Shown: in pieces, positions 21,128 through 62,240 of the stretch
Numbering within the stretch: the stretch's first letter is position 1
Layout of the letters: each line of letters begins with the position of its first letter
Source of the DNA: Sphingobium sp. 66-54
GTDB taxonomy: Bacteria > Pseudomonadota > Alphaproteobacteria > Sphingomonadales > Sphingomonadaceae
NCBI GenBank assembly: GCA_001899715.1
Contig: MKWI01000020.1
Coordinates: forward strand, 1 to 64,000
Reading direction: 5' to 3'
DNA length: 64,000 bases
Notes under the pieces: generated by a model
Told to the model about the DNA's origin: nothing
Database searches by the model: none
Seen by the model: the letters and a program-made list of their open reading frames with translations, nothing else
Program-made: the position numbers and the translations under genes

Positions 21128-21137
21128 CCGAGCGAAC

Positions 21138-31729: not shown

Positions 31730-32344
31730 ATGAGCCCGGCCTATGTTCTCGAGCCAACCTACGACACGCTCAGGCGGCGGCTGTTCACTGGCGTCTGGCC
31801 ATCGGGCCAGCGCCTTGAAGCCGCCCGGCTCGCTACAGAACTGGGCGTCAGCATGACGCCCGTGCGCGACAGCCTCAATCGACTTGCCGGCGAGCGGCTC
31901 GTCCATTCGTCGCCCGGCGAGGGCTTCCAGGTTCCCCTGCTCAGCGAGACCGAGCTTCGGGGACTGATAGACTGGCACCGCGCTCTCATCGGCGTTGCAC
32001 TTGGACGGTGCGGTGCAATCGCCATGTCCACGGATTTGCCGCAAGGCCATGACGGTATCGGCGAGCGCACGGCGATCCTGTTTACGGCAATCGCAAGTAC
32101 GGCCGGAAGCCTCGAGCTTCACTGGGCTCTCGGAAATGCCGCCGCGCGCCTCGGCTGTTATCGACGACATGAGGAAAACGTCCTCGATGGCGCCCATGCA
32201 GAACTGGCCGCTCTCGAAGCGCTTGTGCGTGAGGGAAAGCGGGCCGGGCTCGCGCGGGCAATCGAGCGGTATCATGATCGCCGCCACGCCGTTGCCGGTG
32301 ATCTGGTGCATGCTGCACGGTATGCAGGATCCTCTGATGCGTGA
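31730..32344 (+). CDS. GntR-family transcriptional regulator
   Basis: TYDTLRRRLFTGVWPSGQRLEAARLATELGVSMTPVRDSLNRLAGERLV wHTH plus FCD-like C-terminus. Confidence 0.85.
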   Translation: MSPAYVLEPTYDTLRRRLFTGVWPSGQRLEAARLATELGVSMTPVRDSLNRLAGERLVHSSPGEGFQVPLLSETELRGLIDWHRALIGVALGRCGAIAMSTDLPQGHDGIGERTAILFTAIASTAGSLELHWALGNAAARLGCYRRHEENVLDGAHAELAALEALVREGKRAGLARAIERYHDRRHAVAGDLVHAARYAGSSDA

Positions 32345-38138: not shown

Positions 38139-40709
38139 ATGGCAGAGAAACGGTTTCACGGGCTTTCGGTGCTGCTGGCGGGTGCCGCGATGGCGACGTT
38201 GCCGATGCCGGCGTTGGCGCAGAGCGATCAGACTTATCAGTTCGACCTCCAGGCCCAGGATCTGGGTGATGCGTTGCGCAGCGTCGCGGCCAAGGCAGGC
38301 TGGGAGCTTTATGCGTCGGCCGAGGATGTGAACGGCGTTCCCGCGCCCAGGCTCGAAGGCGCGCTCACCGCACGGCAGGCGATCGAGCGCTTGCTGGCCG
38401 ACACGAACCTGCGTGCTCGCTTCCGCGACGGAGCCGTGATCATCCGGGGGCGATCGGCAGCGATAGCGACGGCAGACGATGAGGCGGCCGACAGCGAGAT
38501 CGTTGTGACTGGCAGCCTCATACGTGGTGCCGATATCCCCTCCGCCAGAATTACAGTATCCCGGTCGGACATCGAAAATGCCGGACAGTCGGATCTGGGT
38601 GAGGTGGTTCGCAATATCCCCCAGAACTTCAGTGGTGGCCAGAACCCTGGCGTCGGCTTCGGTGCCGGGCAGCTCAACACCAATCTCAATTCAGCGGCGC
38701 ATCTCAACCTGCGTGGTCTTGGTTCCGATGCGACGCTGACGCTGCTGAACGGCCATCGGCTCCCTTATGATGGCGCGTTCGGGGGCGTCGATATTTCCGC
38801 CATACCGGTCGAAGCGGTCGAGCGGATCGAGATCGTGCCCGATGGTTCTTCCGCGCAATATGGGTCGGACGCGGTGGCAGGCGTCGCCAATATCATACTT
38901 CGCAGAGACTTTACGGGATTGAAGACCTCGGCACGGATCGGAGGTTCAACCGATGGCGGCAACTTCCAGCAAGGTGTTGATGTCGTCGGCGGTGCAAGCT
39001 GGGCATCCGGCAACCTGATCGCCGCCTATCACTTCGCACACAATTCAGCGATCTATGCGCGGGAACGCAGCTATACGGACTCGCTGGCGCCGGGGAGCTC
39101 CCTCTACCCCTCGATCCGCCAACATTCCGTAACGATTTCTGGTCGCCAGACGATAGCACCGGGCATCGAGTTCAAGGTTGACGGACTCTACAGCAACCGG
39201 CGTTCGACTATTACCTCGGGCAGCCTGGGGAACGCTGGTCTCACAGAGTCCCGATACGCTCCAACGACGAAGGCCTTCTCCATCATCCCGGCCATCGATG
39301 TGAACCTGGGCGGCCAATGGATGGCAAAAGCCTCGCTCGCCTATGGCAGGGACGACAGTCGCTACAACAGGTTGTTCAACCAGCCGGGCATGACCGGCAC
39401 GGTGACGTCCGGCTGCTACTGTAACACTACCTTGACCACCGAACTGGTGATCGATGGACCGCTCGTCTCCTTGCCCGCAGGAGATCTGCGCGTGGCGATC
39501 GGTGGAGGATATCGCTCCAGCAGCATGCGCTATTCGCGTTACGAAAATGAAGGTCTTGCCGCTGCGTTCGACGCCAGCCGGAAAAGTCACTATCTCTTTG
39601 GAGAGGTCCAGCTTCCGGTGATCGCTCCAGAGCAAAGTGTGCCGCTGGTCCGTCGGTTCACAATTACCGCCGCCGCACGTTATGAGAATTATCCGGGCAT
39701 GGCGAGCGTCACGACGCCGAAACTTGGTGCTGTCCTCGAACCCAATAGCGACCTCACGATCAAGGCCTCGTGGGGCCGATCGTTCAAGGCACCCACGCTC
39801 TATCAGCAACATGTCGGTTACGAGGCCTATCTTCTCCCCGCCAGCTGGTATGTTCCAGCCGCCTCGGGCACGATCTTCTATGCAAGCGGCGGAAACCCGG
39901 ACCTGGAACCCGAACGTGCGCGCAGTTGGTCGGCGGGGTTCGAATTTCATCCTCAAGCGCTCGAAGGGTTTCGCGTCGGCGCGAGCTATTTCAACGTGCG
40001 CTATCGGGATCGCGTCGCCAGACCGATCGCCGGATCGATCGCATCCGCGTTCAGTCAGCCCGGCTATGTCAGCCTGTTGAACTATTCCCCTTCGACCGGG
40101 CTGCTGGGCGGACTCGTGGCGGGCTCGCTTTATGGCTTGACCAACTATACCGGTGCCCCATTCGATCCAGCAAACGTGCTCGTCCTCGTGGACAACCGCA
40201 ACCTCAATCTTGCCCGACAGGACATTGAGGGCGTCGACATACACACCAGCGTTCGGTTCTCCATCAGCCCGGATCAAAATATCGGGCTGAACGGATCGGC
40301 GACTTATCTCAAAAGCGACCAGCAGCTCACCCCGCTCCTGCCGCTCACCCAGCTTGCGGGCGTGATCTTCAACCCGCCCCATTGGCGCGGACGTCTCGGC
40401 GCCAGTTGGGAAGCGCGGCGCTTCAACGTGTCGATGTTCGCCAACTATACGGGCAGCGTCACGGACAATCGCTTCCTCCCGTCGAGTTCGGTCGACTCCA
40501 TCCTGACCTTCGACTTCGCGGCCAGGGTGGACATTGGGAACTCTTCCTCCCGGTCGCCAGCGCTGACGATCACGATCGTTGCCAACAATATGTTCAATGC
40601 AAAGCCTGACATCATTCGGGTAACCGGTTCGACCGACACACCCTATGATTCGACGAATTATTCGGCGATCGGTCGCTTTCTCGGATTGACCGTATCGCGG
40701 AGCTGGTGA
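38139..40709 (+). CDS. TonB-dependent receptor with N-terminal STN domain
   Basis: QFDLQAQDLGDALRSVAAKAGWELYASAEDV (STN); IVVTGSLIRGADIPSARITV TonB box/plug; C-terminal FLGLTVSRSW. Confidence 0.9.
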   Translation: MAEKRFHGLSVLLAGAAMATLPMPALAQSDQTYQFDLQAQDLGDALRSVAAKAGWELYASAEDVNGVPAPRLEGALTARQAIERLLADTNLRARFRDGAVIIRGRSAAIATADDEAADSEIVVTGSLIRGADIPSARITVSRSDIENAGQSDLGEVVRNIPQNFSGGQNPGVGFGAGQLNTNLNSAAHLNLRGLGSDATLTLLNGHRLPYDGAFGGVDISAIPVEAVERIEIVPDGSSAQYGSDAVAGVANIILRRDFTGLKTSARIGGSTDGGNFQQGVDVVGGASWASGNLIAAYHFAHNSAIYARERSYTDSLAPGSSLYPSIRQHSVTISGRQTIAPGIEFKVDGLYSNRRSTITSGSLGNAGLTESRYAPTTKAFSIIPAIDVNLGGQWMAKASLAYGRDDSRYNRLFNQPGMTGTVTSGCYCNTTLTTELVIDGPLVSLPAGDLRVAIGGGYRSSSMRYSRYENEGLAAAFDASRKSHYLFGEVQLPVIAPEQSVPLVRRFTITAAARYENYPGMASVTTPKLGAVLEPNSDLTIKASWGRSFKAPTLYQQHVGYEAYLLPASWYVPAASGTIFYASGGNPDLEPERARSWSAGFEFHPQALEGFRVGASYFNVRYRDRVARPIAGSIASAFSQPGYVSLLNYSPSTGLLGGLVAGSLYGLTNYTGAPFDPANVLVLVDNRNLNLARQDIEGVDIHTSVRFSISPDQNIGLNGSATYLKSDQQLTPLLPLTQLAGVIFNPPHWRGRLGASWEARRFNVSMFANYTGSVTDNRFLPSSSVDSILTFDFAARVDIGNSSSRSPALTITIVANNMFNAKPDIIRVTGSTDTPYDSTNYSAIGRFLGLTVSRSW

Positions 40710-42835
40710 TGTTGGCCGGCATCGCGCTGTTAGTGGCCGTCACCGCGGGCATTCCGGCTCAGGGCATCGACCCTTGTTCTGCCCTTGAGCAAGAAGCGGC
40801 GCCGCTTTCGCCTCCTCGCGTCATGACCTCGCGCGACCTTGCAACCATTTCCGACATTGGCCGATCGAGTCCCTTCGATACGGAAAGTCCATTCAGCGTG
40901 TCACCTGATGGCCGCCAGATTGCCTTGATGGAGCGGCGAGGCAATCCGGAAACGAACAGCTTTTGCCAGCGACTCATTCTGGTCCCTCGATCGGGATCGG
41001 GCAGCCCCGTCGAACTGGACCGAGGCGGGCAATTCATCCGTTCTCTCTTCGATCTACGCAATTTGGCGGCGGTGCGTGCGGGGACCGCGCAGATTATCAC
41101 ACCGCGCTGGTCGCCCGACGGGGCAACGATCGCTTATCTCAAACGGGTCAACGACAGCACGCAGGTCTGGATCGTCCCCTCCACTGGAGGCGTTGCTCGT
41201 GCTGCAACGGATCTCGATTTTGAAGTTGAGGACTTCGCCTGGGCCGCTGACGGAAAGAGCCTAATAGTGGCAGGACGTCCCGACCTCGCCAGGGCCGAGG
41301 CCAGGATCGATGAAGAGGCGCGCAGGGGCTATCTGTTCGACGCACGTTTCAGTCCCATGATGTCGGATCGGCCCTACCCGGTGGGAAGCTACCCGACGCG
41401 ATACTTCCATGTCGCTTTGTCCGATCATGATCGGCGGGACGCTTCGCCCGAGGAAATAGCGCTGCTCGGGCCTTCGGCCGGTGCCGACCGGCCACCGGAC
41501 GCGATCCGGTTCGCGGCTGACGGGCGCGGCAATGTGGCATGGTCCCGGAAGCTTGACCGATCGCTTCTATTGTCTCCCAGCCAACTGCACATTCGGTGGC
41601 GCTCCGGCAGCATCACGATATGCGACACGAGCGCATGCGGCGGCATCCAGAGTTTATGGTGGATGCCAAAGAGCGACACCCTGCTGTTCCTCGCCCGCGA
41701 TGGATGGGGAGGAAGCCGCGCCACTCTCTATCGGTGGAATGGCGGCGCCAAAGCCCCAGTTGCCATGATGAGCACAGAAGACGCGCTGGTCGGCTGCGCA
41801 TTGAACGCTGCCGAACTGATCTGCCTGCGCGAAGGCCCGAGACAAACCCGGCACTTGGTGGCGATCGGCATCCGCACGATGCGATCGCGAACGATATTCG
41901 ATCCCAATCCCCAAATGGCCGGGCTGCGCCTAGGCAAAGTCTATCGGCTGCGATTTCGCAACGCTTTTGGCATGGAGTGTTTTGCCGATCTGGTTTTGCC
42001 GCCCAACACAGCGACAGGCGAAAAGCTACCGATGGTTGTCGTGCAATATAATAGTCGCGGCTTTCTCCGCGGCGGCACCGGCGATGAAGTCCCTATTCAG
42101 GTATTGGCTGGACGAGGATTCGCCGTGCTGAGCTTTGAACGCCCATTCGGCGTGCCGGGAACGCGGGAAGCACGAAGCGAGCTCGAATATCGGCAATTGG
42201 CGCGCAAGGATTGGATCGATCGCCGCAGCGTTCAGTCCGCGCTCGAGGAAGCTGTTCGCCGGGCAATCGCGACCGGACTGATCGATCCCGACCGGATCGG
42301 CATTTCCGGGTTCAGCGAAGGCACGACAATGACCCAATGGGCGCTCATCAACAGCCGGATCTTCAAGGTCGCTTCCCTTGGCGTTTGCTGCGAGGACAAG
42401 GTGGCGCTGCCGCTCAACGGAGGTATTGGCTACGAGAGCTATCTGAGAGAGATGGGCTATCCTCTCTTCGAAGACAGCAATGATCGCTTCTGGAACCCGC
42501 TTTCCTTGGCTCAAAACGCCGGCAAGATCGACGTGCCCATCCTGGTGCAGACAAGCGACGATGAGTATGAAGCGGGTCTGGATGTCATGGAGGCTTTCCG
42601 CAGGCGCGGCAATCCCATCGAAATGTATGTGTTCAAGGATGAGCCGCATATCAAATGGCAGCCTGCGCACCGGTTGGCGATATACGAGCGGAATGTCGAC
42701 TGGTTTGAATTCTGGCTGATGAGGCGAATGGATTGTTCGCCGGACAAGCGTGCCCAATACGCCCGATGGCAGACCATGCAGGGTGCCCCGGATTTATCGG
42801 CCCAATGCGCTATCGCTGCTTCCGGCGGACCATGA
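40706..42835 (+). CDS. Atxe2-family lasso peptide isopeptidase (S9-like)
   Basis: Beta-propeller-like N-terminus; Ser-hydrolase GISGFSEGTTMTQWALI; DEPHIKW; context downstream of the TonB receptor. Confidence 0.87.
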   Translation: MMLAGIALLVAVTAGIPAQGIDPCSALEQEAAPLSPPRVMTSRDLATISDIGRSSPFDTESPFSVSPDGRQIALMERRGNPETNSFCQRLILVPRSGSGSPVELDRGGQFIRSLFDLRNLAAVRAGTAQIITPRWSPDGATIAYLKRVNDSTQVWIVPSTGGVARAATDLDFEVEDFAWAADGKSLIVAGRPDLARAEARIDEEARRGYLFDARFSPMMSDRPYPVGSYPTRYFHVALSDHDRRDASPEEIALLGPSAGADRPPDAIRFAADGRGNVAWSRKLDRSLLLSPSQLHIRWRSGSITICDTSACGGIQSLWWMPKSDTLLFLARDGWGGSRATLYRWNGGAKAPVAMMSTEDALVGCALNAAELICLREGPRQTRHLVAIGIRTMRSRTIFDPNPQMAGLRLGKVYRLRFRNAFGMECFADLVLPPNTATGEKLPMVVVQYNSRGFLRGGTGDEVPIQVLAGRGFAVLSFERPFGVPGTREARSELEYRQLARKDWIDRRSVQSALEEAVRRAIATGLIDPDRIGISGFSEGTTMTQWALINSRIFKVASLGVCCEDKVALPLNGGIGYESYLREMGYPLFEDSNDRFWNPLSLAQNAGKIDVPILVQTSDDEYEAGLDVMEAFRRRGNPIEMYVFKDEPHIKWQPAHRLAIYERNVDWFEFWLMRRMDCSPDKRAQYARWQTMQGAPDLSAQCAIAASGGP

Positions 42836-44557
42836 CCGCGCCCAAGCCTCTGCGTCGGCGAGATCAAGAATACGGTAGAGGAGTTGGTCGCGACTTGTCC
42901 GCGCGCTGGACAGGGCCTGCTCCACGGCCACGGGATCGATAATCCGATTTTGACGGAGAAGGCCATCGAGCAACAGTTCGCGAAGCTTTGGCCTACCTGA
43001 TTCGAAGGCGGCAGCCGTTACGCTGTCAGGGCCGGCCTTGGACGTCCTATGGACCACCTGTCGGGGGAGAAAGCCGCCAAATGCCCGCCGCGCGACCGAT
43101 CGGTTGATGCCGCCTTCGCACCACTGCCAGCTCGATATGCGCAGACAGGTCTCGACGATGGGCTGAGCGAGAAGCACCGGAACCATGGGAGGAAAGGTGG
43201 TGCGATCTTGCCCTTCCACGAAGTTCTGGATGCGCTGAAGCAAGCGGACGTGCGCCAGTTTGCCGGGAAACCGTCCGGCCCCCCTATCCATATAGGGCGT
43301 GAGCGGCGCGGATTGCGCAAGGACGGCACACGCGGCATTGAGGAGTGTCAGGTCGGGTTCAGACGCCACGAGAGACGGCCGGGTGCGCGACAACTTAAAG
43401 GCCGCGCGAGCCATCGTCGGGATGTCGCATTGGGTCACCCGGCACATATCCAGCAGCGTGTTCCAGGCTGGCTTCAGGCCTTTCTCTTGGCGGAAACGAT
43501 CAACGACCGGGGCTGCGGAATGGAGAAAGCAGAAGACGTTGTCCCCGCCATTCCCTGTAAATATCGCGTCCGCACCAGTCTTGCATATTTCCGCAGCGTA
43601 GGCCCTGTCCAATTCCTGCAAAAACGGGCGCCCAACAGGGCGCGGCAGGTGCGCTGCGGATGAACGGCTAAGGTCGATATTGTCGACGGCATATTGATGC
43701 GCCGCAAGAGGGACTCCGGCCACGGCTGCGACGCTGGCGGCATAGCGGCGTTCGTCACCGCTGGCATCAGTGGTCGCCATGGTCAGACAACTGAAGCGGT
43801 GTCCTCCCCGTGTCAGTGCGGCGCAGACGATCGACGAATCCAGACCGCCGGACACGCCCACGATGATATTTTGATAGTCTGACGCAAGAGCACTGACCGA
43901 TGCAAAGACGGTGTCGCGCAGGCGCGTGACGGCCTGATCCGGATCGATCGCCATGTTCGGGTGAACGAATATCCACGGCTCCCACAGCATTCGATCTCCA
44001 GCTTCATGGCCGGATACTGTCCTTGCGCTGCCGGGCGCCAGTTCCGACACGCCATCGATGCAACTGTGCCGACGGCGCACGTCAGGCCATTGGAGATGCT
44101 CATAAAGGCGTTCCCAATCCACCTTCGACACGGCAATGCCCGCCGCGGACAGCGTATGCAGGTCCGAGGCCCAGATATGATGCGCGTGCGTTTCAACCTG
44201 GTAGCATGGCAAAAAGCCCGATGGGGCTCTTATGATGGAATAGCCGCCGACATCGTCGCTTTGATGGACGGCAACATACGCGCCCCAATAGTCCTTGATC
44301 AACGCGGCACCGCCCGAATCGACAAGCCTAGCTGCTTCGGCAGCGGTCATCTCCTCAATGGCTGAAAATGTCTCGCGGGAGAACAGGCGGCCGATGATCA
44401 CGCCCTGATCGGCCGGAAGGTGCAGCACCCTTGCTGGATCGCTGCACCATAATAGAGCCTCATCATCGGAAGAAACGGATGGAGATTGAACGAGGCTGAT
44501 CCGCAGCGGGGATTGCCGGCCCTTTCGCATGCGCAGGAGAAAGCGAAGGGCGCTCAC
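42794..44557 (-). CDS. Asparagine synthase-like lasso peptide cyclase
   Basis: IIVGVSGGLDSSIVCAAL PP-loop; ADAIFTGNGGDNVFCF; LPRQVVHRTSKAGPDS. Confidence 0.9.
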   Translation of the reverse strand: MSALRFLLRMRKGRQSPLRISLVQSPSVSSDDEALLWCSDPARVLHLPADQGVIIGRLFSRETFSAIEEMTAAEAARLVDSGGAALIKDYWGAYVAVHQSDDVGGYSIIRAPSGFLPCYQVETHAHHIWASDLHTLSAAGIAVSKVDWERLYEHLQWPDVRRRHSCIDGVSELAPGSARTVSGHEAGDRMLWEPWIFVHPNMAIDPDQAVTRLRDTVFASVSALASDYQNIIVGVSGGLDSSIVCAALTRGGHRFSCLTMATTDASGDERRYAASVAAVAGVPLAAHQYAVDNIDLSRSSAAHLPRPVGRPFLQELDRAYAAEICKTGADAIFTGNGGDNVFCFLHSAAPVVDRFRQEKGLKPAWNTLLDMCRVTQCDIPTMARAAFKLSRTRPSLVASEPDLTLLNAACAVLAQSAPLTPYMDRGAGRFPGKLAHVRLLQRIQNFVEGQDRTTFPPMVPVLLAQPIVETCLRISSWQWCEGGINRSVARRAFGGFLPRQVVHRTSKAGPDSVTAAAFESGRPKLRELLLDGLLRQNRIIDPVAVEQALSSARTSRDQLLYRILDLADAEAWARSWSAGSSDSALGR

Positions 44558-45219
44558 AGGACAAAGATCGGCGTAAAGCGCGCGACCTCCTCGGGCGAGT
44601 CGTTGAGAACGACGTCGCCAATCTGTGCCCAGCTATGCGCGGCGAAAGGAATACCCCTGACACCCATCACGAGATGGGCTGCACATCCAAGTGCGGCGAG
44701 CCGTTGAACAAGCGCGATCGAGCGCGACAGGCATCGGTTTGCCGGCGTCCTGGCGAGCTTCGCCAGTTCGAAGGCCCTGATTGTTCTGGCTGGCAGACGA
44801 TGATCGATTGAAGCAGTGACCGCCCGGGCTTTCTCGCTGCGCAGGGAAGAAATGACCGATGCCAGTCCCTGCCGGTCGAGCCGTTTCCTGATCCGGGTTT
44901 CGGTAAGGAGAGTTCTCAGCGTTTCGCCCAGGGTTGTCTCACCCTTCAGCGCATCCGCTGCCCGAGACGGCACAGGCAATTCGACCTGCTGCCTCACTTC
45001 GTTGCCGTCTTTCGAACACAGGATACCCCTCTCGGTCAGGGTTGAAACGGCCAACGTCGGTGCGGAATGTCCTTCGATGACGGACAGGAAACTGGCTTCG
45101 AGATCTGCGCCTAACTGGAAATAGCGATCCCTATTCACATCCAGAAAAATTACGCGTGACCCTGCGCGACAGTAGAATATCCCGGGTGCCGTCCCATAGT
45201 GCATTGCGGGCATCCGCAA
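44554..45219 (-). CDS. Lasso peptide biosynthesis B protein (RRE/PqqD-like domain fused to leader peptidase)
   Basis: N-terminal FLDVNRDRYFQLGADLEASF; C-terminal NRCLSRSIALVQRLAALGCAAHLVMGVRGIPFAAHSWAQIGDVVLND (Cys-His-Asp). Confidence 0.88.
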   Translation of the reverse strand: MRMPAMHYGTAPGIFYCRAGSRVIFLDVNRDRYFQLGADLEASFLSVIEGHSAPTLAVSTLTERGILCSKDGNEVRQQVELPVPSRAADALKGETTLGETLRTLLTETRIRKRLDRQGLASVISSLRSEKARAVTASIDHRLPARTIRAFELAKLARTPANRCLSRSIALVQRLAALGCAAHLVMGVRGIPFAAHSWAQIGDVVLNDSPEEVARFTPIFVL

Positions 45220-45255: not shown

Positions 45256-45390
45256 TCAGTCCTGCGCGATTCCGGTGAGGAACTGCTGCCGGCCTCCGCC
45301 GACATCCTGATCGATCAGCGCCTCGCCCTTGGTTTCGACCGACGCCTTGCCCAGGTCGATGACCTCCTCTGTTACTTCGGTGCGTTCCAT
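45256..45390 (-). CDS. Lasso peptide precursor (44 aa)
   Basis: MERTEVTEEVIDLGKASVETK|GEALIDQDVGGGRQQFLTGIAQD; Thr at -2, Gly1, Asp8; directly upstream of the B and C genes. Confidence 0.85.
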   Translation of the reverse strand: MERTEVTEEVIDLGKASVETKGEALIDQDVGGGRQQFLTGIAQD

Positions 45391-45466
45391 TGTTTCACTC
45401 CTTCCTTCACGCGACTCGATTAGCCGCAAGCGGAAGGGTTTCAGATCGAGTTGCAGCAATCTATTT

Positions 45467-45497
45467 TATAATCGAATTATAATCCGATTATAATCGA
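45467..45497. repeat. AT-rich iterated TATAATC(C)GA motif upstream of lasso precursor
   Basis: TATAATCGA/TATAATCCGA/TATAATCGA at 11-bp periodicity; palindrome TTATAATC-C-GATTATAA at 45477..45493. Confidence 0.6.
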
Positions 45498-45690
45498 AGC
45501 TATCGGCTACGCAGATATGGTCAATTACGTGAAAATGTGACCGAGTAGTGAGATCGTGCGTTGGGAGCACGCACCGACGCCTTTAGCTTGAGCCTGGACA
45601 TGCGCGCCAGTCACCCGGTCACTCCGCTCGCAAGCAAGCGGCGCGCTATTCTAGCGTATAGGAAGCGCTTGTGTATCCGCTATCCGAAAT

Positions 45691-45927
45691 TTAATCCGAT
45701 TTGGACCCGGACTGACTTCTGTTCCTGACAAAGCCGCGATCGGTGGCCATGAACCGATCAAGCATCGGCGCAATCAGGCGTTCGACGGAAAGCGGTTGAG
45801 AAAGGCCGGTCTGGGCGGCGTGAACCCTGGCATAGGCAATGAGATCGCGGTGGACGGACGCGGGCAGGTCCAGTGTCAGCTTGACCGGCTTGTCATCGTC
45901 GATCGGCCCCAGTTTCAGCTTGCTCAT
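45691..45927 (-). CDS. DUF2274-family small protein
   Basis: MSKLKLGPIDDDKPVKLTLDLPASVHRDLIAYARVHAAQTG; start overlaps trbI stop. Confidence 0.78.
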   Translation of the reverse strand: MSKLKLGPIDDDKPVKLTLDLPASVHRDLIAYARVHAAQTGLSQPLSVERLIAPMLDRFMATDRGFVRNRSQSGSKSD

Positions 45928-47219
45928 CACTGTTCCTCCCGCGGCGGCTCGAGCACCAAATCTCGCGTCACGATGACGTGAAGGACATGGCCTGGGCGTA
46001 TGGTGAGCGTCGGGGGGATACCGAGTTGACGCTGCACGACCTGGCGTCCCGTTTGATTGATCGTGTCCTGCGTGCCGTAGCGCAACGCCTCGACCAACGC
46101 GTCGTCGCTGTCGGTTGCGAGTTCGGTGCCGACGCCCAGCAACGTCGAGATCAGCGCGGCCTTGAGCATGCTGCCCCAATGATAGTTCACGCGATCCCGG
46201 ATCCCCGCCATACCGGACGCATCGGCACCTGGCTGGCGGTCCAGCAGGATCGAGCGGCCGCCTGGAAGAATAAGACGATCCCAGGCGAGCAGCACGCGGC
46301 TTTGGCCCGCCGAGACTTCGCTGTCATATTCTCCGATCAGCCGCGAGCCCTGCGGGATGAGAAGGATGCGTCCCGTCGGGCTGTCATAGACATTCTGTGT
46401 AACCTGGGCGGCGATCTGGCCGGGCAGGTCCGACTGGATGCCGGTGATCAACGCGGCCGGGATGACGCTGCCCGCCTGCACGATATAAGGTGAAGCCGGT
46501 GGCGCGATCCGCTCATCGCTGGCGGTGGAGCGGTCGGCGGCGACGGCCATAAAGCCCCGCTTGCCAGTCGGCGCGGGAGCCGGATTGGCCGCAATGCCAA
46601 CTGAAGCGGGCGGCATAGCCTGCTCTGCAGACGCCGCCGAAGCGCGCGCGCCGCTCATTGCTTCGCCGAGGAACAATCGACTGGTGCGCGCGGTGTCGCG
46701 CTCCTGCACGATGCGCTGGCGGGCCTGTTCCGCTGCAGCGATGCGCGGGTCCACCGATTGAGGAGCCGGCGTCCCCATGGGCGGCGCGGGAACGGGCTGA
46801 CCATTTTGCTGCGCCGAGAGGATCGGGCGGCCGAGGTCGCCCGGGAGCGGCTGACCGAGCTTGGGAACCTTGTCGTAGCTGGCCGGCGCCGCGGTCACAT
46901 TATCCGCCTTATTCCGGCTCTCGGTTTCGACGAGATTCGGTGCGTCGGCATGACGCGCGGGCAGAAGTGCATAGACGAGCGCGCCGCCGATGCTGAGGCA
47001 GGCGACCGCACCGACAGAGGCAAGCGCCTTGCGCGAAAGGCGCATGACGGACGGCGGATCGCCGCGCAACCGGAATGCCTGCCCATCATGGACGGGGCGC
47101 GGAGCGGTAACTGGCGCCGCTTCCGGTTCCTCCCCGGTATTCGGCCTGGCTGCGGGATCCTGCGGCAGGCCGGCTACCGGCTCCCCAGCTTCAGCCCTTT
47201 CTCCTCCCGGCCCGCTCAT
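45927..47219 (-). CDS. trbI: TrbI/VirB10-family conjugal transfer protein
   Basis: YIVQAGSVIPAALITGIQSDLPGQIAAQVTQNVYDSPTGRILLIPQGSRLIGEYDS. Confidence 0.93.
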   Translation of the reverse strand: MSGPGGERAEAGEPVAGLPQDPAARPNTGEEPEAAPVTAPRPVHDGQAFRLRGDPPSVMRLSRKALASVGAVACLSIGGALVYALLPARHADAPNLVETESRNKADNVTAAPASYDKVPKLGQPLPGDLGRPILSAQQNGQPVPAPPMGTPAPQSVDPRIAAAEQARQRIVQERDTARTSRLFLGEAMSGARASAASAEQAMPPASVGIAANPAPAPTGKRGFMAVAADRSTASDERIAPPASPYIVQAGSVIPAALITGIQSDLPGQIAAQVTQNVYDSPTGRILLIPQGSRLIGEYDSEVSAGQSRVLLAWDRLILPGGRSILLDRQPGADASGMAGIRDRVNYHWGSMLKAALISTLLGVGTELATDSDDALVEALRYGTQDTINQTGRQVVQRQLGIPPTLTIRPGHVLHVIVTRDLVLEPPREEQ

Positions 47220-50555: not shown

Positions 50556-51278
50556 TCAGTTCTTCCCCCGGAAGCGGCGGAACCGTTCGAGTGCCTCGGC
50601 CTCGATCGCAGCGTTGCGCGCGGATTCGAGCGCCTGAGCGCGGCCCTGCGCAGCAATTGCGGCGGTGAGGTCGGCGAGCTGCTGCGACTGGAGCGCTAGC
50701 AGCTGGTTGCCGGCCTGCGCCGCCTGCAAGGCACCGCTCGCCGACTGGCTGGCGCCGACGAGCGTGTCGATCGACGTGCGGGTGCCGCCCAAATTGCCGA
50801 CCACGCCCGCCTGCACACGCAGCGCATCTTCGAGGGCCCCGACGCTGTCCTCCCAGCGCGCATTGGCATTGGCGACCATCTGGGCATGGTCGCCGGTGAG
50901 CGCACTGCCCTTGTAGCGGCCATCGAACGCTTGCTGGATGCTCTGCACATCATAGGCGATGCGTTGAGCCTGGCTCAGCAACTGCCGGGTCTGATCGACC
51001 TGTTGCTGCAAGGTCGAGAGCGTCGAGACCGGCAGGCTGGCGAGATTCTTCGCCTCGTTGATGAGGCTGGTTGCCTGATTCTGGATCTGCTGGATTTGAT
51101 TATTGATCTGTTGCAGCGCGCGGGCCGCCTGCAGCACGTTCGACGCATAGTTGGTCGGGTCATAGACGATGCCGCCGAAACCGAACTGCGCCTGCGCCGG
51201 AACAGAGGTCATCGCGCCGGTGACGGACAGCGCGATAGCGCCGGCCAGCAAGGCGCTACCAAGCGGATACTTCTTCAT
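50556..51278 (-). CDS. trbJ: P-type conjugative transfer protein TrbJ (VirB5-like)
   Basis: VYDPTNYASNVLQAARALQQINNQIQQIQNQATSLINEAKNL. Confidence 0.92.
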   Translation of the reverse strand: MKKYPLGSALLAGAIALSVTGAMTSVPAQAQFGFGGIVYDPTNYASNVLQAARALQQINNQIQQIQNQATSLINEAKNLASLPVSTLSTLQQQVDQTRQLLSQAQRIAYDVQSIQQAFDGRYKGSALTGDHAQMVANANARWEDSVGALEDALRVQAGVVGNLGGTRTSIDTLVGASQSASGALQAAQAGNQLLALQSQQLADLTAAIAAQGRAQALESARNAAIEAEALERFRRFRGKN

Positions 51279-53764
51279 GGGTGTAACTCCTCAGGGTCGA
51301 GCGGCAGCAAGAGCTCGTCGCTCGAGATGGATGCAGTCAGCGGATCGGGTTCGGGCAGCAGGCTGGCGGCCCAATCGAGGCCGCGATGCCTGAGCCAATG
51401 GGCGGCGAAGGCGTGCGTCCCATGCTTGGCGACGAGCTCGCCGATGCGGAGCTGGTCGGACTTTGACGATGCGGCGGTGAAAGCGAGCGCGACCTCGCCC
51501 AGGCCCAGTTCGAACAGCCGATTGCCGCGCCGCGACTGACAGTAATAATCGCGCTTGGGCGTTGCCCGGCTCAATATCTCGATCTGCCGGGCGTTGAGCC
51601 CGAACCGTTCATATACGTGTGAGATCTGCGGCTCGGCGGCGCGCTCATTGGAGAGGAAGATGCGCGTCGGGCAGCTTTCGATGATGGCGGGCGCGATTGC
51701 GGACGTCTCGATATCGGCGAGGCTCTGCGTGGCGAACACGACGCTGGCGTTCTTCTTGCGCAGCGTCTTCAGCCATTCACGAAGCTGCGCGGCGAAAACC
51801 GGGCTGTCGAGCACCAGCCAGCCTTCGTCGATGATGATGAGCGTGGGTCGCCCGTCGAGCCGGCCTTCGATCCGGTGGAAGAGATAGGCGAGCACGGCGG
51901 CGGCCGATGCCGCGCCGATCAGCCCTTCGGTCTCGAACGCCTGGAAACTCGCCTCGCCCAGTTGTTCGGTCTCGGCATCGAGCAGCCGCCCCCAGGGACC
52001 GCCGACGCAATAGGGCGCGAGCGCCTGCTTCAGCTCCTGGCTTTGCAGCAGCACGGCCAGCCCGGTGAGCGTGCGCTCGGACGGCGGCGCCGAGGCGAGC
52101 GAGCCGAGCGCGGTCCACAGATGCTCCTTGGCGGCGGGATCGACGGTGACGCCTTCACTGGCAAGGATGGCAGCGAGCCATTCCGCAGCCCAGGCACGCT
52201 CGCCGGGATCGTCGATCCGAGCGAGCGGTTGCAGGGCGACGCCCTCACCACCTTCCCGGTCATGCAGCGCGCCGCCTAGATCCTGCCAGTCGCCGCCGCA
52301 GGCGATGGCGGCAGCACGGATCGAGCCGCCGAAGTCGAAGGCGAAGATCTGATTGTCGGGATAGCGGCGGAACTGCATCGCCATCACCGCCAGCAGCACC
52401 GATTTGCCGGCCCCCGTCGGCCCGACGATCAGCGTATGGCCGACATCGCCGACATGAAGCGAAAGACGGAACGGGGTCGAGCCTTCGGTCTTGCCGTAAA
52501 GCAAGGGGGCGTCACCGAAATGCTCGTCCCGTTCCGCTCCCGCCCACACCGCTGACAGGGGGATCAGGTGGGCGAGATTGAGGGTGGAGATTGGAGGCTG
52601 GCGGACGTTTGCGTATACATGGCCGGGCAACGAACCCAGCCAAGCCTCGATCGCGTTCATGCCTTCGATGGTCGCGGTGAAGTCGCGGCCCTGGATGATC
52701 TTCTCGACCAACCGCAGTTTCTCGGCCGCCAATGCAGGATCGCGATCCCACACAGTCACGGTGGCGGTCACATAGGCGATGCCCGAATGGTCCGCACCAA
52801 GTTCCTGCAAAGCGAGGTCCGCATCCGCCGCCTTGTTCGACGCATCGGTGTCGGTCAGCACCGACGCCTCATTGGTCATCACCTCTTTCAGAATCGCGGC
52901 GACGCTCTTGCGCTTGGCGAACCACTGGCGCCGGATCCTGGTCAGCAATTTGGTGGAATCGGTCTTGTCGAGCATGATCGCGCGCGTCGACCAGCGATAA
53001 GGGAAGGCCAGCCGGTTCAGTTCGTCGAGCAGACCGGGAAAGGTCGCTGTTGGAAAGCCGGTGACTGTAGCCACGCGCAGATGATGCTCGCCCAGCTTCG
53101 GCTCGAGCCCGCCGGTCAGCGCCTCATCGGTGAGCAGCGCATCGAGATAGCAAGGCGTCTCGGGCACCCGCACGCGCTGGCGCTTGGTCGATACGCATGA
53201 ATGGAGGTAGGTCAGCGTATCGGCGTCATCGAGCCAGCGCACCTCGGGCATGAAGCCGTCGACCAGGTGGAGCACGCGGTTCGTCCGGTCGATGAAGCCC
53301 GCCAGCTGCTCATGCGGATCGACGCCGCTGCCCGAACGGCCTTCATAGAGCCAGTTCTCCGCGCGCGCGGCCTCTTCGGCGGGCGGCATCCAGAGGAGGG
53401 TCAGGTAATAGAAGCTCTCGAAATGGCTTCCCGCCTCCCGGAATTGCTCGCCTCGCTCCATGTCGACGAGCGCCGAGACCGGATCGGGAAAGGCACTTTC
53501 CGGATAGTCCAGCGCGGGAACGCGCTGTGCTTCCACGAACACGGCCCAGCCGGAGCCGAGACGCCGCAGCGCGTTATTGAGACGCGCGGTCACCGAGACC
53601 AGTTCGGCGGGCGTGGCGCTGTCGAGATCGGGACCGCGAAAGCGCGTCGTGCGCTGGAACGATCCGTCCTTGTTCAGCACCACGCCCGGCGCCACCAGTG
53701 CGACCCAGGGCAGGAAATCGGCAAGGCAGGCGGCCTTGGAGCGATATTCGGACAAATTCATCAT
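51275..53764 (-). CDS. trbE: TrbE/VirB4 conjugal transfer ATPase
   Basis: Walker A VGPTGAGKSVLL; TLIIIDEGWLVLDSPVFAAQLREWLKTLRKKNASVVFATQSL. Confidence 0.94.
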   Translation of the reverse strand: MMNLSEYRSKAACLADFLPWVALVAPGVVLNKDGSFQRTTRFRGPDLDSATPAELVSVTARLNNALRRLGSGWAVFVEAQRVPALDYPESAFPDPVSALVDMERGEQFREAGSHFESFYYLTLLWMPPAEEAARAENWLYEGRSGSGVDPHEQLAGFIDRTNRVLHLVDGFMPEVRWLDDADTLTYLHSCVSTKRQRVRVPETPCYLDALLTDEALTGGLEPKLGEHHLRVATVTGFPTATFPGLLDELNRLAFPYRWSTRAIMLDKTDSTKLLTRIRRQWFAKRKSVAAILKEVMTNEASVLTDTDASNKAADADLALQELGADHSGIAYVTATVTVWDRDPALAAEKLRLVEKIIQGRDFTATIEGMNAIEAWLGSLPGHVYANVRQPPISTLNLAHLIPLSAVWAGAERDEHFGDAPLLYGKTEGSTPFRLSLHVGDVGHTLIVGPTGAGKSVLLAVMAMQFRRYPDNQIFAFDFGGSIRAAAIACGGDWQDLGGALHDREGGEGVALQPLARIDDPGERAWAAEWLAAILASEGVTVDPAAKEHLWTALGSLASAPPSERTLTGLAVLLQSQELKQALAPYCVGGPWGRLLDAETEQLGEASFQAFETEGLIGAASAAAVLAYLFHRIEGRLDGRPTLIIIDEGWLVLDSPVFAAQLREWLKTLRKKNASVVFATQSLADIETSAIAPAIIESCPTRIFLSNERAAEPQISHVYERFGLNARQIEILSRATPKRDYYCQSRRGNRLFELGLGEVALAFTAASSKSDQLRIGELVAKHGTHAFAAHWLRHRGLDWAASLLPEPDPLTASISSDELLLPLDPEELHP

Positions 53765-54030: not shown

Positions 54031-54362
54031 CACACCAGCGCGCCGCCGCCGAAGCTGAAGAAGCTGAGGAAGAAGGAGCTGGCGGCAAAAGCGATCGACA
54101 GGCCGAACACGATCTGGATCAGCCGGCGGAACCCGCCCGAGGTGTCGCCGAAAGCGAGGCTGAGGCCCGTCACGATGATGATGATCACCGCGACGATCTT
54201 GGCCACCGGACCTTCGATCGATTCGAGGATCGATTGCAGCGGCGCTTCCCAGGGCATGGACGACCCGCCGGCATGGGCCGCACCGGCGGTCATCAGCGTG
54301 ACGAAGGCTGCAGAGGCGGCGAGCGCGGCGCGGCGAGCGCCACGCCGGAGGGCATGAGTCAT
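54030..54362 (-). CDS. trbC: TrbC/VirB2-family pilin
   Basis: Signal peptide; MPWEAPLQSILESIEGPVAKIVAVIIIIVTGLSLAFGDTSGGFRRLIQIVFGLSIAFAASSF. Confidence 0.92.
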   Translation of the reverse strand: MTHALRRGARRAALAASAAFVTLMTAGAAHAGGSSMPWEAPLQSILESIEGPVAKIVAVIIIIVTGLSLAFGDTSGGFRRLIQIVFGLSIAFAASSFFLSFFSFGGGALV

Positions 54363-57911: not shown

Positions 57912-58336
57912 TCCGACCGAGTCGACCGCGTTACATCTTCCGCGATCTCGTTCCTGAACCGCGGCCCCAGCTCCATGCGCCGGTTCAACATATCGACGAA
58001 CCGCTCCCATCGCTCGCGGCCCTGCGCCCTTGCGGCCTGCGTCGCGCTGTCCGGGAGCGACGGCGTCGCGTTGAGCCAGTTCCGCACAAACAGCGCGAGG
58101 GTTTCGTTGGTGAGGTCAACATGCCATTCGAGGCGGCCAAGATCACGGGTTAGCCGGTCGAGCCGGCGAGCAAGTGCGGCTTCAAGCCGCTCGGCGGCGT
58201 CGGGCGACAGGAAGGACTCCAGCGCAGCCTCGATGATCGCGGCCTGGCTAGTGTTCCGCGCGGCAGCGTGATCGGCGAGACGGCGCGCCAGATCACTCCG
58301 CAACCGGATGCTGCGCTTGACGTGGCCTCCGCTCAC
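57884..58336 (-). CDS. CopG/ribbon-helix-helix family protein linked to traG
   Basis: MSGGHVKRSIRLRSDLARRLADHAAARNTSQAAIIEAALESFL; overlaps the TraG start region of the transfer operon. Confidence 0.78.
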   Translation of the reverse strand: MSGGHVKRSIRLRSDLARRLADHAAARNTSQAAIIEAALESFLSPDAAERLEAALARRLDRLTRDLGRLEWHVDLTNETLALFVRNWLNATPSLPDSATQAARAQGRERWERFVDMLNRRMELGPRFRNEIAEDVTRSTRSDQDSGSTSE

Positions 58337-60396
58337 AGCACGATCCCGTCATCCGGGTCGAGCGACGCATTACGGGCATTGCGGCGCATGGTCCGCTCCG
58401 CCTCGCGTTTCGCCCGGGCGGCATCCTCATCCTGGTTGTCCTCATCGGGCGTTTCTTCCTGGGACGCTTCCTTCGCCGGAGGAGCGATTTCCTCATGTTC
58501 GCCAAGGTCGGGTTCGCGGCGGATGCCGGCATTGGCGGTGTCGGCTGAAGCATCCGTCTGATCACTATGCTTCACGTCCTGAGTTTCCCCGGCATCCGCT
58601 TCTCCCTTCTCGGCCTCTTCGCCAGATGCAGGCGGGCTGGATGGCGGGGCCGGCGGCGCATTTACCGGCATGAGAGCGGACCAGTCATCCTTGGGCCGTC
58701 GCTTGGGATCGAGTGGCTTGGGTGTCGGTGGCGGCAGCAACCGCACGGTAAAGCGCGGATCGGTGAAGTAGCGTGCCTTCATAGCCCGGATTGGCGGCAC
58801 GCCCCCCACCATGACAATCTCCTCGTCGGGGGACAACTGGATGATCTCGCCTGGCGTGAGTAAGGGGCGCGCCGTCTCGGTTCGCGAGACCATCAAATGT
58901 CCGAGCCAGGGCGAGAGCCTGTGTCCGGCATAGTTTTTCATCGCCCGCATTTCGGTGGCGGTGCCGAGCGCATCCGATATCCGCTTGGCGGTGCGCTCGT
59001 CATTGGTCGCGAAGGCGACACGGACATGGCAATTGTCGAGGATGGCATTGTTCTGCCCATAGGCCTTCTCGATCTGGTTGAGGCTCTGGGCGATGAGGAA
59101 CGCCTTGATCCCATAGCCCGCCATGAAGGCGAGCGCGCTTTCAAAGAAGTCGAGCCGCCCGAGTGCGGGGAACTCATCGAGCATCAGCAGCAGCCGGTGC
59201 GGACGGCCTTTGGGATTGAGTTCTTCGGTCAGACGCCGGCCGACCTGGTTGAGGATCAGGCGGATGAGCGGCTTGGTGCGGCTGATGTCGGAGGGCGGCA
59301 CGACGAGATAGAGCGAGACCGGCGCCGACCCGTCGACCAGATCGGCGATGCGCCAGTCGCAAGCCCGCGTCACCGTCGCCACGATCGGATCGCGATAGAG
59401 CCCCAGGAATGACATGGCGGTGCTGAGCACGCCCGAGCGTTCGTTCTCCGACTTGTTGAGCAGCTCGCGTGCCGCGCTGGCGACGACAGGATGAACCCCC
59501 ACCTCGCCCAAGTGCGGCGTCGTCATCATTGCGCGCAGCGTGGTCTCGATCGGGCGGCGCGGATCGGAGAGGAAGGCGGCGACCCCGGCCAGCGTCTTGT
59601 CTTCTTCCGCATAGAGGACATGGAGGATCGCACCGACCAGCAGCGCATGGCTGGTCTTTTCCCAGTGGTTGCGCTTCTCGAGGCTGCCTTCGGGATCGAC
59701 CAGCACGTCGGCGACATTCTGAACGTCGCGCACTTCCCACTCGCCCTTCCGGACCTCGAGCAGCGGATTATAGCAGGCGCTCGCCGGATTGGTGGGATCG
59801 AACAGCAGCACGCGGCTGTGCCGTGATCGGAAACCGGAAGTGAGCTGCCAGTTCTCGCCCTTGATGTCGTGGACGATGCAGCTTCCCGGCCAGGTGAGCA
59901 GCGAGGGTATGACGAGGCCGACGCCCTTGCCCGACCGGGTCGGCGCGAAGCACAGCACATGTTCGGGACCATCGTGGCGCAGATAGCGCTGCGCGAAGTG
60001 GCCAAGAACGACGCCATCGTCGCCGAGCATCTTCACTTTTTTGACTTCGCGCTCGCTGGCCCAGCGCGCCGAACCATAGGTTTCGGCTTTCTTCGCTTCC
60101 TTTGCGCGCCAGACCGACATGGCAATCGCGATGACGATCCCGGCCATCGCGCCTGACACCGCGATGAGCGCCCCGGTCTCGAAGATCTTCGGCGCATAGG
60201 CGTCGAACGCGAACCACCACCAGAAGAAGGCCGGCGGCGGATAGATCGGCCATGACCCCAGCGAGAACCAGGGCTCCCCCAGCTCGGGCTGATAGGCGAG
60301 TGCGTGCGCGGTCCATTGGGTTGCCGCCCAGATGCCGGTCAGCGTCACACCGAAGACGGCGATGATCTGGCCCCAGAGGATACGGGTTGCGTTCAT
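58333..60396 (-). CDS. traG: Type IV coupling protein TraG/VirD4
   Basis: FAPTRSGKGVGLVIPSLL Walker A; LLMLDEFPALGRLDFFESALAFMAGYGIKAFLIAQSLNQ. Start moved to MNATRILWGQ. Confidence 0.94.
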   Translation of the reverse strand: MNATRILWGQIIAVFGVTLTGIWAATQWTAHALAYQPELGEPWFSLGSWPIYPPPAFFWWWFAFDAYAPKIFETGALIAVSGAMAGIVIAIAMSVWRAKEAKKAETYGSARWASEREVKKVKMLGDDGVVLGHFAQRYLRHDGPEHVLCFAPTRSGKGVGLVIPSLLTWPGSCIVHDIKGENWQLTSGFRSRHSRVLLFDPTNPASACYNPLLEVRKGEWEVRDVQNVADVLVDPEGSLEKRNHWEKTSHALLVGAILHVLYAEEDKTLAGVAAFLSDPRRPIETTLRAMMTTPHLGEVGVHPVVASAARELLNKSENERSGVLSTAMSFLGLYRDPIVATVTRACDWRIADLVDGSAPVSLYLVVPPSDISRTKPLIRLILNQVGRRLTEELNPKGRPHRLLLMLDEFPALGRLDFFESALAFMAGYGIKAFLIAQSLNQIEKAYGQNNAILDNCHVRVAFATNDERTAKRISDALGTATEMRAMKNYAGHRLSPWLGHLMVSRTETARPLLTPGEIIQLSPDEEIVMVGGVPPIRAMKARYFTDPRFTVRLLPPPTPKPLDPKRRPKDDWSALMPVNAPPAPPSSPPASGEEAEKGEADAGETQDVKHSDQTDASADTANAGIRREPDLGEHEEIAPPAKEASQEETPDEDNQDEDAARAKREAERTMRRNARNASLDPDDGIVL

Positions 60397-60430
60397 GGGA
60401 TTAAGCTCCTGCTGATGAAGATATGTAAGA

Positions 60431-62176
60431 TCACAGGCCCAGCCCCCGGCCGCGGCCGAGCGACCAGTCGACGCCGCCACCGGGCGTCATCGTGCCGCTG
60501 ATATGCTTGCCCAGATGCTGGTCGAGCGCTGGCCGCCAGGGCACGAGCTGAAAACCAAGTCCGTCATCGATCATGGCGAACCGGCCCGAGGCGAGCGTCA
60601 CCCGCTCGCGATAGACGCCGCTCACATAGTCGCCGGCGGCCGATGGCCGATGCGAAAGGCCCGTGCGCCTGGAGATGGCGTCGATCTCCTGATCGACCTC
60701 ATTGCCCTTGAGGGTCGCGATGAGGTCGCGCGCGAACAGGAAGCCAGCGCCGCGCCGCTGAGCGAGACCGGCGCTTTCGAGATGGAGGGAGCGCGCTTCC
60801 ATCGCCTCGCGGATCTCGAGTCCGAACCCGGCGCCGGACGCGACCGGCTCGCGAGCGATGAGCTGGCGGTCGAGCCAGGTCGCGCCGGGCGCGTTCACCT
60901 GCTGAGCCAGCGTCAGGTCGGAGCGGGTCGCGAGCGACAGGCGCGTATTGCCCTTGGCGTCCTGCCAGTTCCGCGTCTCAACAATCGCCCCGGGTCTGGC
61001 GTCGCCGGTCATCTCCATATCGTCGAAGCGCAGATGATGCGTTCGCCCGTCGGCGCCGTCGATCACCGCATAGGCCGTGCCCGCCAGTTCGTCGTGCAGA
61101 CCGCGCTCGACCAGGCGGCCGACGATGGGATCGGCCGGAGCTTCACCATGGAGAGCGAAGCTGCCGGTATCGGGCACGCGGCCGCCATCACTCATCGCCC
61201 GGTGCATGGTCTTGATGATGTCGGTGCGGATGGAGAGGTCGCGCAGCGTCTTTTCCGCGCCGGGCCTCAGCGACCAGACCGCCGGTCCTTGCCCGTAGGC
61301 AAGACCCAGCCGTTCGAGCTTGCCGGCACGGCCGATCAGCAGGCGGCGCATTTCGGGATCGTCGCCACCACCCGGACGCAGATCGACCATGCCGGTCATC
61401 TCATCAGCCATGCGCTGCAGACGGCGATCGAGGCTCGTCCAGCGATCGGCGTCAACTTCCCGCTCCAGGGCGGCGCGGATCTCTTGTTCGGTGCGCGGTC
61501 CGAGTTCGATCGTGACGCGCTCCTCCGCGCGGGCGCGCATGCCTTCGCGGATATAGTCGCGGTCGATGACGAGATCGGCACCGGTCTCGTCGACGCCGCG
61601 CACGAGGACATGGATATGGGGATTGTCGGTGTTCCAGTGATCGACCGCCACCCAGTCGAGCCGGGTGCCGAGATCGGCCCTCAAATCGTCCATCAACTCG
61701 CGAGTGAACGCCTTGAGGTCGGCCATCTGGCCTGCGTCCTCGGGCGAGACGATGAAACGAAAATGGTGCCGATCATCTTCGCACCGCTCGGCGAAGGCGT
61801 CGCCATCCGCCTGGTCGGAGCGGGCATCGAACAGGCTGGCGTCGCGACCGTCGCGCGTCACGCCATCGCGTTTCAGATAGGCGATATGCCGGGCGAGCGG
61901 CGCCGCGCGAAACTTCGATCCCTTATGCCTGACCACACGGGCCTTGATGACGACGCGCCGGGCATTGGCTGGGGCTCGGGTGCGCAGACGTGCAATGCGG
62001 CCTCGGCCATGGCGCCCCGTGCCTTTGCCGCGTGATGGCCCCCGGCGACTGTACCCTGCCTTGGCCGCTGCCCGGCGAACCTGTGCGGCGAGGCTCTGGA
62101 CCTTACGTCCCGATCCCTTGCCAGCATCGCGGCTTCTTCCCGGCCGAACCCGGAAATCATCGTCGCCAGCGGTCAT
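60431..62176 (-). CDS. Relaxase (VirD2-like / DUF3363)
   Basis: HWNTDNPHIHVLVRG histidine motif; HHFRFIVSPEDAGQMADLKAFTRELM; DUF3363-like C-terminal half. ATG start at 62176 preferred over TTG at 62230. Confidence 0.88.
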   Translation of the reverse strand: MTAGDDDFRVRPGRSRDAGKGSGRKVQSLAAQVRRAAAKAGYSRRGPSRGKGTGRHGRGRIARLRTRAPANARRVVIKARVVRHKGSKFRAAPLARHIAYLKRDGVTRDGRDASLFDARSDQADGDAFAERCEDDRHHFRFIVSPEDAGQMADLKAFTRELMDDLRADLGTRLDWVAVDHWNTDNPHIHVLVRGVDETGADLVIDRDYIREGMRARAEERVTIELGPRTEQEIRAALEREVDADRWTSLDRRLQRMADEMTGMVDLRPGGGDDPEMRRLLIGRAGKLERLGLAYGQGPAVWSLRPGAEKTLRDLSIRTDIIKTMHRAMSDGGRVPDTGSFALHGEAPADPIVGRLVERGLHDELAGTAYAVIDGADGRTHHLRFDDMEMTGDARPGAIVETRNWQDAKGNTRLSLATRSDLTLAQQVNAPGATWLDRQLIAREPVASGAGFGLEIREAMEARSLHLESAGLAQRRGAGFLFARDLIATLKGNEVDQEIDAISRRTGLSHRPSAAGDYVSGVYRERVTLASGRFAMIDDGLGFQLVPWRPALDQHLGKHISGTMTPGGGVDWSLGRGRGLGL

Positions 62177-62240
62177 GTCAGCGCCGAAATCGGCGCTGCC
62201 ACCCGCCGACCTCTTGAAATCACGCCACAATCGGAAAATC

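What the first reader, a model, noticed from the sequence alone, without database searches (positions are those of the whole stretch)
45256..45390. Predicted 23-aa lasso core GEALIDQDVGGGRQQFLTGIAQD
The leader ends ...ETK with the conserved Thr at -2. Gly1 to Asp8 would give an 8-residue macrolactam; tail bulky residues such as R13, Q14/Q15 or F16 are plug candidates. From memory this resembles or equals the reported sphingopyxin II sequence, so the peptide itself may be known.
Basis: partly seen in the sequence, partly recalled or inferred. Interest (0 to 1): 0.65.

Follow-up and report, generated by a model that had tools for sequence, protein, structure and literature searches.

The report
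Lasso peptide gene on conjugative DNA
The predicted peptide is a genuine lasso-peptide core, probably already described as sphingopyxin II, but its genes sit inside a quorum-sensing conjugative element and lie behind a conserved structured RNA of a phage-like antisense kind, a setting I found described nowhere.

Summary
ATG at 45390 (minus strand) opens a 44-aa precursor, MERTEVTEEVIDLGKASVETK|GEALIDQDVGGGRQQFLTGIAQD, above the curated cut-offs of the Pfam subterisin and NCBIfam benenodin families. Protease B, cyclase C, isopeptidase E, TonB receptor and FecI/FecR complete a known cluster type. In 18 precursors core Gly1, core Asp8 and leader Thr(-2) are invariant, so the 8-residue ring is well supported; plug residues stay untested. 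Identity with sphingopyxin II rests on memory: no held paper prints the sequence. The same core occurs in Novosphingobium clariflavum.

The new part lies beside the gene. (1) The cluster lies between luxR-luxI-phyH-gntR and a trb conjugation operon; the order trbI-DUF2274-A-B-C recurs in ten loci of seven genera, with no trbI or trbE in 20 control stretches. (2) A 92-nt three-stem RNA (45534-45625) recurs upstream of A in 24 of 36 lasso loci and upstream of fecI in four more, with strong covariation; phage members of the motif resemble Rfam sRNA-Xcc1, a C4-like architecture. (3) A hairpin in A's leader pairs with its Shine-Dalgarno sequence (permutation p=2e-4). What the RNA targets is not shown.

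The parts
45256..45390 (-). lasso precursor gene A (44 aa)
45328..45390 (-). leader peptide (21 aa, Thr at -2)
   Evidence: sequence; T20 invariant
45259..45327 (-). core peptide GEALIDQDVGGGRQQFLTGIAQD; predicted Gly1-Asp8 macrolactam
   Evidence: G22 and D29 of the precursor invariant in 18 sequences
45391..45450 (-). 5' leader of A: inner hairpin GCGGCU/AGUCGC inside a stem that pairs CCCUUCC with the Shine-Dalgarno GGAAGGAG
   Evidence: fold; own versus swapped pairing in 18 loci, permutation p=2e-4
45461..45499 (-). AT-rich repeats GATTATAATCGGATTATAATTCGATTATAAAATAG, promoter- or operator-like
   Evidence: role inferred
45534..45625 (-). conserved three-stem RNA, C4/sRNA-Xcc1-like architecture
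   Evidence: covariation, model R1 87.1 bits
45691..45927 (-). DUF2274 protein that follows trbI
   Evidence: Pfam PF10038 109 bits
44554..45219 (-). lasso protease B (Cys163, His195, Asp207 as putative triad)
   Evidence: NF033537 and PF13471; residues located
42794..44557 (-). lasso cyclase C (asparagine-synthetase fold, ATP motif SGGLDSS from residue 236)
   Evidence: PF00733; motif
40706..42835 (+). lasso isopeptidase E (Ser537, His648)
   Evidence: NF033523 784 bits against a cut-off of 400; PDB AtxE2 5txc 452 bits, aligned Ser and His
38139..40709 (+). TonB-dependent receptor
   Evidence: PF00593, PF07715, PF07660
36929..38026 (+). FecR anti-sigma regulator
   Evidence: PF04773
36279..36932 (+). 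FecI-type sigma factor
   Evidence: PF08281, PF04542
33438..34370 (+). nucleotidyltransferase-HEPN protein, recurrent neighbour of lasso clusters
   Evidence: Pfam; neighbourhood
31730..32344 (+). GntR regulator
   Evidence: PF00392
30850..31725 (+). PhyH dioxygenase
   Evidence: PF05721
30161..30853 (+). LuxI autoinducer synthase
   Evidence: PF00765
29366..30118 (+). LuxR autoinducer receptor
   Evidence: PF03472, PF00196
45927..55342 (-). trb conjugation operon (trbI at 45927-47219 ... trbE 51275-53764 ... trbB 54359-55342)
   Evidence: NCBIfam TrbI/VirB10 (below the family cut-off); nucleotide matches to annotated trb genes
58333..62230 (-). coupling protein TraG (58333-60480) and DUF3363 relaxase (60431-62230)
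   Evidence: Pfam

Best explanation
Gene A encodes an isopeptidase-type (benenodin family) lasso peptide. B removes the 21-residue leader, C joins the Gly1 amine to the Asp8 side chain around the tail, giving an 8-residue ring (minus one water, calculated monoisotopic mass 2369.16). The TonB receptor takes up the peptide (or a ligand bound to it), FecI/FecR signal this, and E opens the ring. The cluster is a resident module of a quorum-sensing conjugative element (LuxR-LuxI-PhyH-GntR on one side, trb/traG/relaxase on the other), not merely a neighbour. Expression of A is set partly at the RNA level: a leader hairpin hides its ribosome-binding site, and a C4-like three-stem RNA lies 143 nt upstream. 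Shown: precursor, enzymes, conserved residues, gene order, RNA covariation, leader pairing. Inferred: ring closure, uptake and signalling, what the RNA acts on.
For: Precursor and enzymes above curated cut-offs (A, B, E); invariant Thr(-2), Gly1, Asp8; E aligned to AtxE2 with catalytic Ser and His. Gene order trbI-DUF2274-A-B-C convergent with E-TBDR-fecI in ten loci of seven genera; LuxR, LuxI, PhyH, trbI and trbE absent from 20 random control stretches. ICE form with integrase beside the quorum-sensing end in three other genomes. TrbI distances correlate with those of C, B, E and TBDR (Mantel r 0.60-0.75, p<0.01). RNA: 12 of 20 pairs with changes on both sides, 50 compensated cells against 17.5 by shuffling and at most 9 for slid structures; 24 of 36 lasso loci upstream of A, four upstream of fecI; controls at most 20.6 bits. 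Leader pairing p=2e-4.
Against: No expression, mass or structural data. C scores below NCBIfam cyclase cut-offs (only the broad Pfam Asn_synthase is met). Seven lasso loci lack the RNA and about half lack trb within reach. Antisense pairing of the RNA with A's ribosome-binding site is no better than with other loci's sites. Reported isopeptidase-type lasso peptides mostly lack antimicrobial activity and their role is unsettled (PMC9266682).
Confidence: 0.8

Rival explanations
1. It is exactly sphingopyxin II, already made and characterised; the cluster is ordinary cargo that happens to sit on a mobile element.
For: Sphingopyxin II was expressed in E. coli (PMC7549694, PMC6092494).
Against: Sequence not printed in any held text; S. 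alaskensis not among the hits of the C-protein scan; its F plasmid shows no lasso gene. The recurrent trb and luxR order speaks against accidental cargo.
Confidence: 0.6
2. The upstream three-stem RNA belongs to the mobile element (end of the trb operon or plasmid control) and has nothing to do with the lasso gene.
For: Same motif occurs upstream of GGDEF genes, upstream of a small regulator beside TraR in a Rhizobium plasmid, and in phage contigs; in L075 it lies on the trb side.
Against: It stays just upstream of A in clusters without trb (L014, L061, L062, L076, L120, L121), and where missing there it is found upstream of the cluster's fecI in four loci.
Confidence: 0.3
3. The conserved block is a DNA element (binding site or recombination site), not an RNA.
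For: Inverted repeats are also DNA features; an AT-rich promoter-like stretch lies between it and A.
Against: Three stems covary with conserved loops, including G-U pairs on the A-sense strand; related phage members match the RNA family sRNA-Xcc1 with the same stems.
Confidence: 0.1
4. A degenerate or silent cluster.
For: Frameshifted precursors occur in relatives (L031, L041).
Against: All genes here are intact; purifying selection between window and N. clariflavum (pN/pS 0.16-0.22 for A, B and C).
Confidence: 0.05

Closest known systems
Benenodin family / AtxE2-type isopeptidase lasso clusters (astexins, benenodin-1, subterisin, sphingopyxins)
   Same: Precursor family, B, C, E, TonB receptor, FecI/FecR, GntR, no ABC transporter seen
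   Different: Here embedded in a trb conjugative element with LuxR-LuxI-PhyH, and preceded by a conserved structured RNA; I found no report of either
Sphingopyxin II
   Same: Core sequence, from memory
   Different: Host here is inferred to be Sphingobium; identity not verified
sRNA-Xcc1 (RF02221) and c4-type antisense RNAs (RF01695, RF02944)
   Same: Three-stem layout with an outer P1; phage members of the motif score 39 and 34 bits with RF02221
   Different: Lasso members match no Rfam family at E up to 10, have a conserved P3 loop, and show no special pairing with the downstream ribosome-binding site
Quorum-controlled trb elements (Ti-type plasmids, rhizobial ICEs)
   Same: LuxR/LuxI genes beside trb/tra genes
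   Different: A lasso module lies between the quorum-sensing genes and trb; control of transfer by LuxR is not shown
Sphingocin cluster of Sphingomonas BPH (PMC11006600)
   Same: Benenodin-type A-B-C with divergent isopeptidase and TonB receptor
   Different: Different core; a Tn5 insertion in its B gene abolished phenanthrene use, a phenotype untested here

Membership tests
Lasso peptide (class) | Leader with Thr at -2, Gly1, acid at ring position 7-9 | tested here: met
Lasso peptide (class) | B protease and ATP-dependent C cyclase adjacent | tested here: met
   C by Pfam only
Lasso peptide (class) | Threaded macrolactam | not testable with these tools
   needs MS, NMR or protease assays
Benenodin family, isopeptidase clade | Precursor model NF033522 over cut-off | tested here: met
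   59.4 against 33 bits
Benenodin family, isopeptidase clade | AtxE2-type isopeptidase with catalytic Ser and His | tested here: met
   784 against 400 bits
Benenodin family, isopeptidase clade | TonB receptor, FecI/FecR, GntR | tested here: met
Sphingopyxin II | Identical core sequence | not testable with these tools
   sequence not in held papers
sRNA-Xcc1 / C4 antisense RNA | Three-stem architecture | tested here: met
sRNA-Xcc1 / C4 antisense RNA | Rfam gathering score | tested here: not met
   no match for the window's RNA
sRNA-Xcc1 / C4 antisense RNA | Antisense to the ribosome-binding site of the gene below (C4 mechanism, from memory) | tested here: inconclusive
   lasso loci: own -16.7 against swapped -15.8 kcal/mol; some phage members pair strongly
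trb-type conjugative element | trb genes, coupling protein, relaxase | tested here: met
trb-type conjugative element | ICE integrase and ends (as against a plasmid) | tested here: inconclusive
   integrase found in relatives G302, G337, G383, not shown on this contig

The most novel reading that the evidence does not exclude
Sphingomonad conjugative elements carry a lasso-peptide signalling module: the lasso peptide, its TonB receptor, FecI/FecR and isopeptidase form a second, peptide-based sensing circuit beside LuxR-LuxI, with precursor output controlled by a new subfamily of C4-like RNA and by a leader hairpin that hides the ribosome-binding site, so that production is tied to the state of the element.
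Probability: 0.3. Interest if true: 0.85.

Novelty: new variant of a known kind. Interest (0 to 1): 0.55.

Why it matters
The role of isopeptidase-type lasso peptides is an open question: most tested ones kill nothing, and a siderophore-like role has been proposed (PMC9266682). Finding the module fixed inside quorum-sensing conjugative elements, next to trb and luxR, and finding two conserved RNA structures in front of the precursor gene, gives concrete hypotheses that can be tested by knock-outs: a role in signalling or competition tied to element transfer, and RNA-level control of precursor synthesis. It also extends C4-like RNAs, known from phages, to lasso clusters.

Tried and rejected
Naming the host by 16S failed (no 16S in the assembly); genus Sphingobium was inferred because G092, in the same genus, has a contig of 1,247,975 bases, the length of Sphingobium sp. 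V4 NZ_CP081002.1. The core was not found with its exact pattern in 400 other Sphingomonadaceae genomes. Six-residue ring to Asp6: rejected, Asp6 not conserved. RNA as antisense to A's ribosome-binding site: not supported. One hand-drawn structure had two empty pairs and was replaced. Viral contigs hold no C relative. PDB search with the precursor gave chance hits only.

Full report
OBSERVATION. The stretch 45256-45390 on the minus strand encodes a 44-residue precursor with the stated 23-residue core. It scores 59.4 bits with NCBIfam NF033522 (benenodin family, cut-off 33) and 50.6 bits with Pfam subterisin (cut-off 27).

CLUSTER. Downstream on the same strand lie B (44554-45219; putative Cys163, His195, Asp207) and C (42794-44557; SGGLDSS). 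Convergent to them lie isopeptidase E (40706-42835; 784 bits, best PDB relative AtxE2, Ser537 and His648 aligned), a TonB receptor, FecR and FecI. This is the published architecture of isopeptidase-type lasso clusters (PMC9266682). C is assigned by Pfam and position; it stays below NCBIfam cyclase cut-offs.

RING. I collected further benenodin-type precursors from Sphingomonadaceae genomes and aligned 18. Leader L13, G14 and T20 (-2), core Gly1 and Asp8, and G40 are invariant. Asp6 is not. An 8-residue ring follows by homology; threading and plug residues cannot be tested here.

IS IT SPHINGOPYXIN II? But no held paper prints it, the primary paper is not held, and the one scan of named genomes with the C protein found N. 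clariflavum and S. formosensis, not S. alaskensis. I therefore treat the identity as likely but unproven. N. clariflavum carries the identical core in a 10.7-kb block 92.9% identical to the window, reaching from C through trb. The window's genus is inferred to be Sphingobium, so the peptide occurs in at least two genera.

CONJUGATIVE SETTING. The trb operon ends with trbI and DUF2274 just upstream of A, on the same strand; traG and a DUF3363 relaxase follow further out. On the other side lie luxR, luxI, phyH and gntR. The order trbI-DUF2274-A-B-C is found in ten loci: the window, N. clariflavum, Novosphingobium PP1Y plasmid Lpl, and seven loci from genomes of Novosphingobium and five further genera, with at least six different cores. 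In four further loci trbI lies 4-8 kb away. In 20 random 20-kb stretches of the same genomes no trbI, trbE, luxR, luxI, phyH or HEPN homologue was found at E 1e-6; one had a 32% trbB match. In PP1Y Lpl the whole luxR-to-A module lies between traG and trb. In three other genomes an integrase lies beside the gntR end, as in an ICE. TrbI distances correlate with those of C, B, E and the receptor (Mantel r 0.60-0.75, p 0.001-0.008, nine loci), as expected if module and element share a history.

UPSTREAM RNA. A block of about 92 nt (45534-45625, minus strand) ends 143 nt before the ATG. Its loops are conserved (GCRUGUCCARGC...GCUAAAGGC; CCCAAC) and its three stems change in step: 92% of cells paired, 12 of 20 pairs with changes on both sides, 50 compensated cells against 17.5 (sd 3.9) in shuffles and 1-9 when the partner is slid. 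Model R1 finds it upstream of A in 24 of 36 lasso loci; in four others (L053, L058, L064, L080) it lies upstream of fecI; in one on the trb side; seven lack it. In control stretches the best match is 20.6 bits. 18 of these sequences built the model, so their own scores are no independent evidence; the independent points are L120, L121, L053, L080, L064 and the loci outside lasso clusters. Outside lasso clusters it occurs about 100-150 nt upstream of GGDEF genes, of a small regulator beside TraR in Rhizobium plasmid pRACO34Aa, and in phage contigs. The window's RNA matches no Rfam family, but phage members match sRNA-Xcc1 (RF02221) at 39 and 34 bits, below its gathering score of 53, with the same stems. 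Some phage members are complementary to the ribosome-binding site of the gene below (for example L136, L139, L143), the mechanism known for C4 RNA. For lasso loci this is not so: own pairing energies are no better than swapped ones. The target is therefore open.

LEADER HAIRPIN. Between the RNA and A lie AT-rich repeats and then a hairpin whose outer stem pairs with the Shine-Dalgarno sequence. Over 18 loci each 5' arm pairs better with its own Shine-Dalgarno region than with others (-13.4 against -9.5 kcal/mol, permutation p 2e-4). Relatedness of the loci is not corrected for in this test.

WHAT IS SHOWN AND WHAT IS INFERRED. Shown by sequence: precursor, enzymes, conserved residues, gene order with controls, RNA covariation, leader pairing. 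Inferred: cyclisation and threading, uptake by the receptor, sigma signalling, control by the RNA, any link to transfer. For scoring, the peptide alone is a known kind and perhaps a known molecule; the mobile setting and the RNA make it a new variant.

Noticed in passing
window 20738-22865: A second RiPP-type locus: DUF2282 protein, MbnB/TglH/ChrH-type enzyme and DUF2063 protein beside a heavy-metal P-type ATPase, of the bufferin/methanobactin-like kind.
   Followed up: no
window 32645-36031: Toxin-antitoxin-like genes (AbrB/PIN pair, HEPN-nucleotidyltransferase, AbiEi/AbiEii) are interposed between gntR and fecI of the lasso module; the HEPN gene is a recurrent neighbour of lasso clusters.
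   Followed up: partly
L116, L117, L118 (upstream of GGDEF); L124 2997-3085: The same three-stem RNA lies upstream of GGDEF genes in Agrobacterium, Sphingobium and Sphingomonas plasmids, and upstream of a small regulator next to TraR in a Rhizobium plasmid; BLAST also lists 57 Agrobacterium plasmid records.
   Followed up: partly
L129-L152 (viral contigs): The motif GUCCARGC...GCYAAAGGC with the same stems occurs in many phage contigs, often just upstream of antirepressor-like genes, with P3 complementary to the ribosome-binding site in several.
   Followed up: partly
L031, L041/L060: Frameshifted lasso precursors in relatives (a second copy in G512; Novosphingobium THN1), either real decay or assembly error.
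   Followed up: no
L042, L049: Sphingopyxin-I-like precursors (cores GIDPVGPRDEATGEHFLLSGGITTDD and GIEPVGPRDEDTNEHFLLVGGITAED).
   Followed up: no
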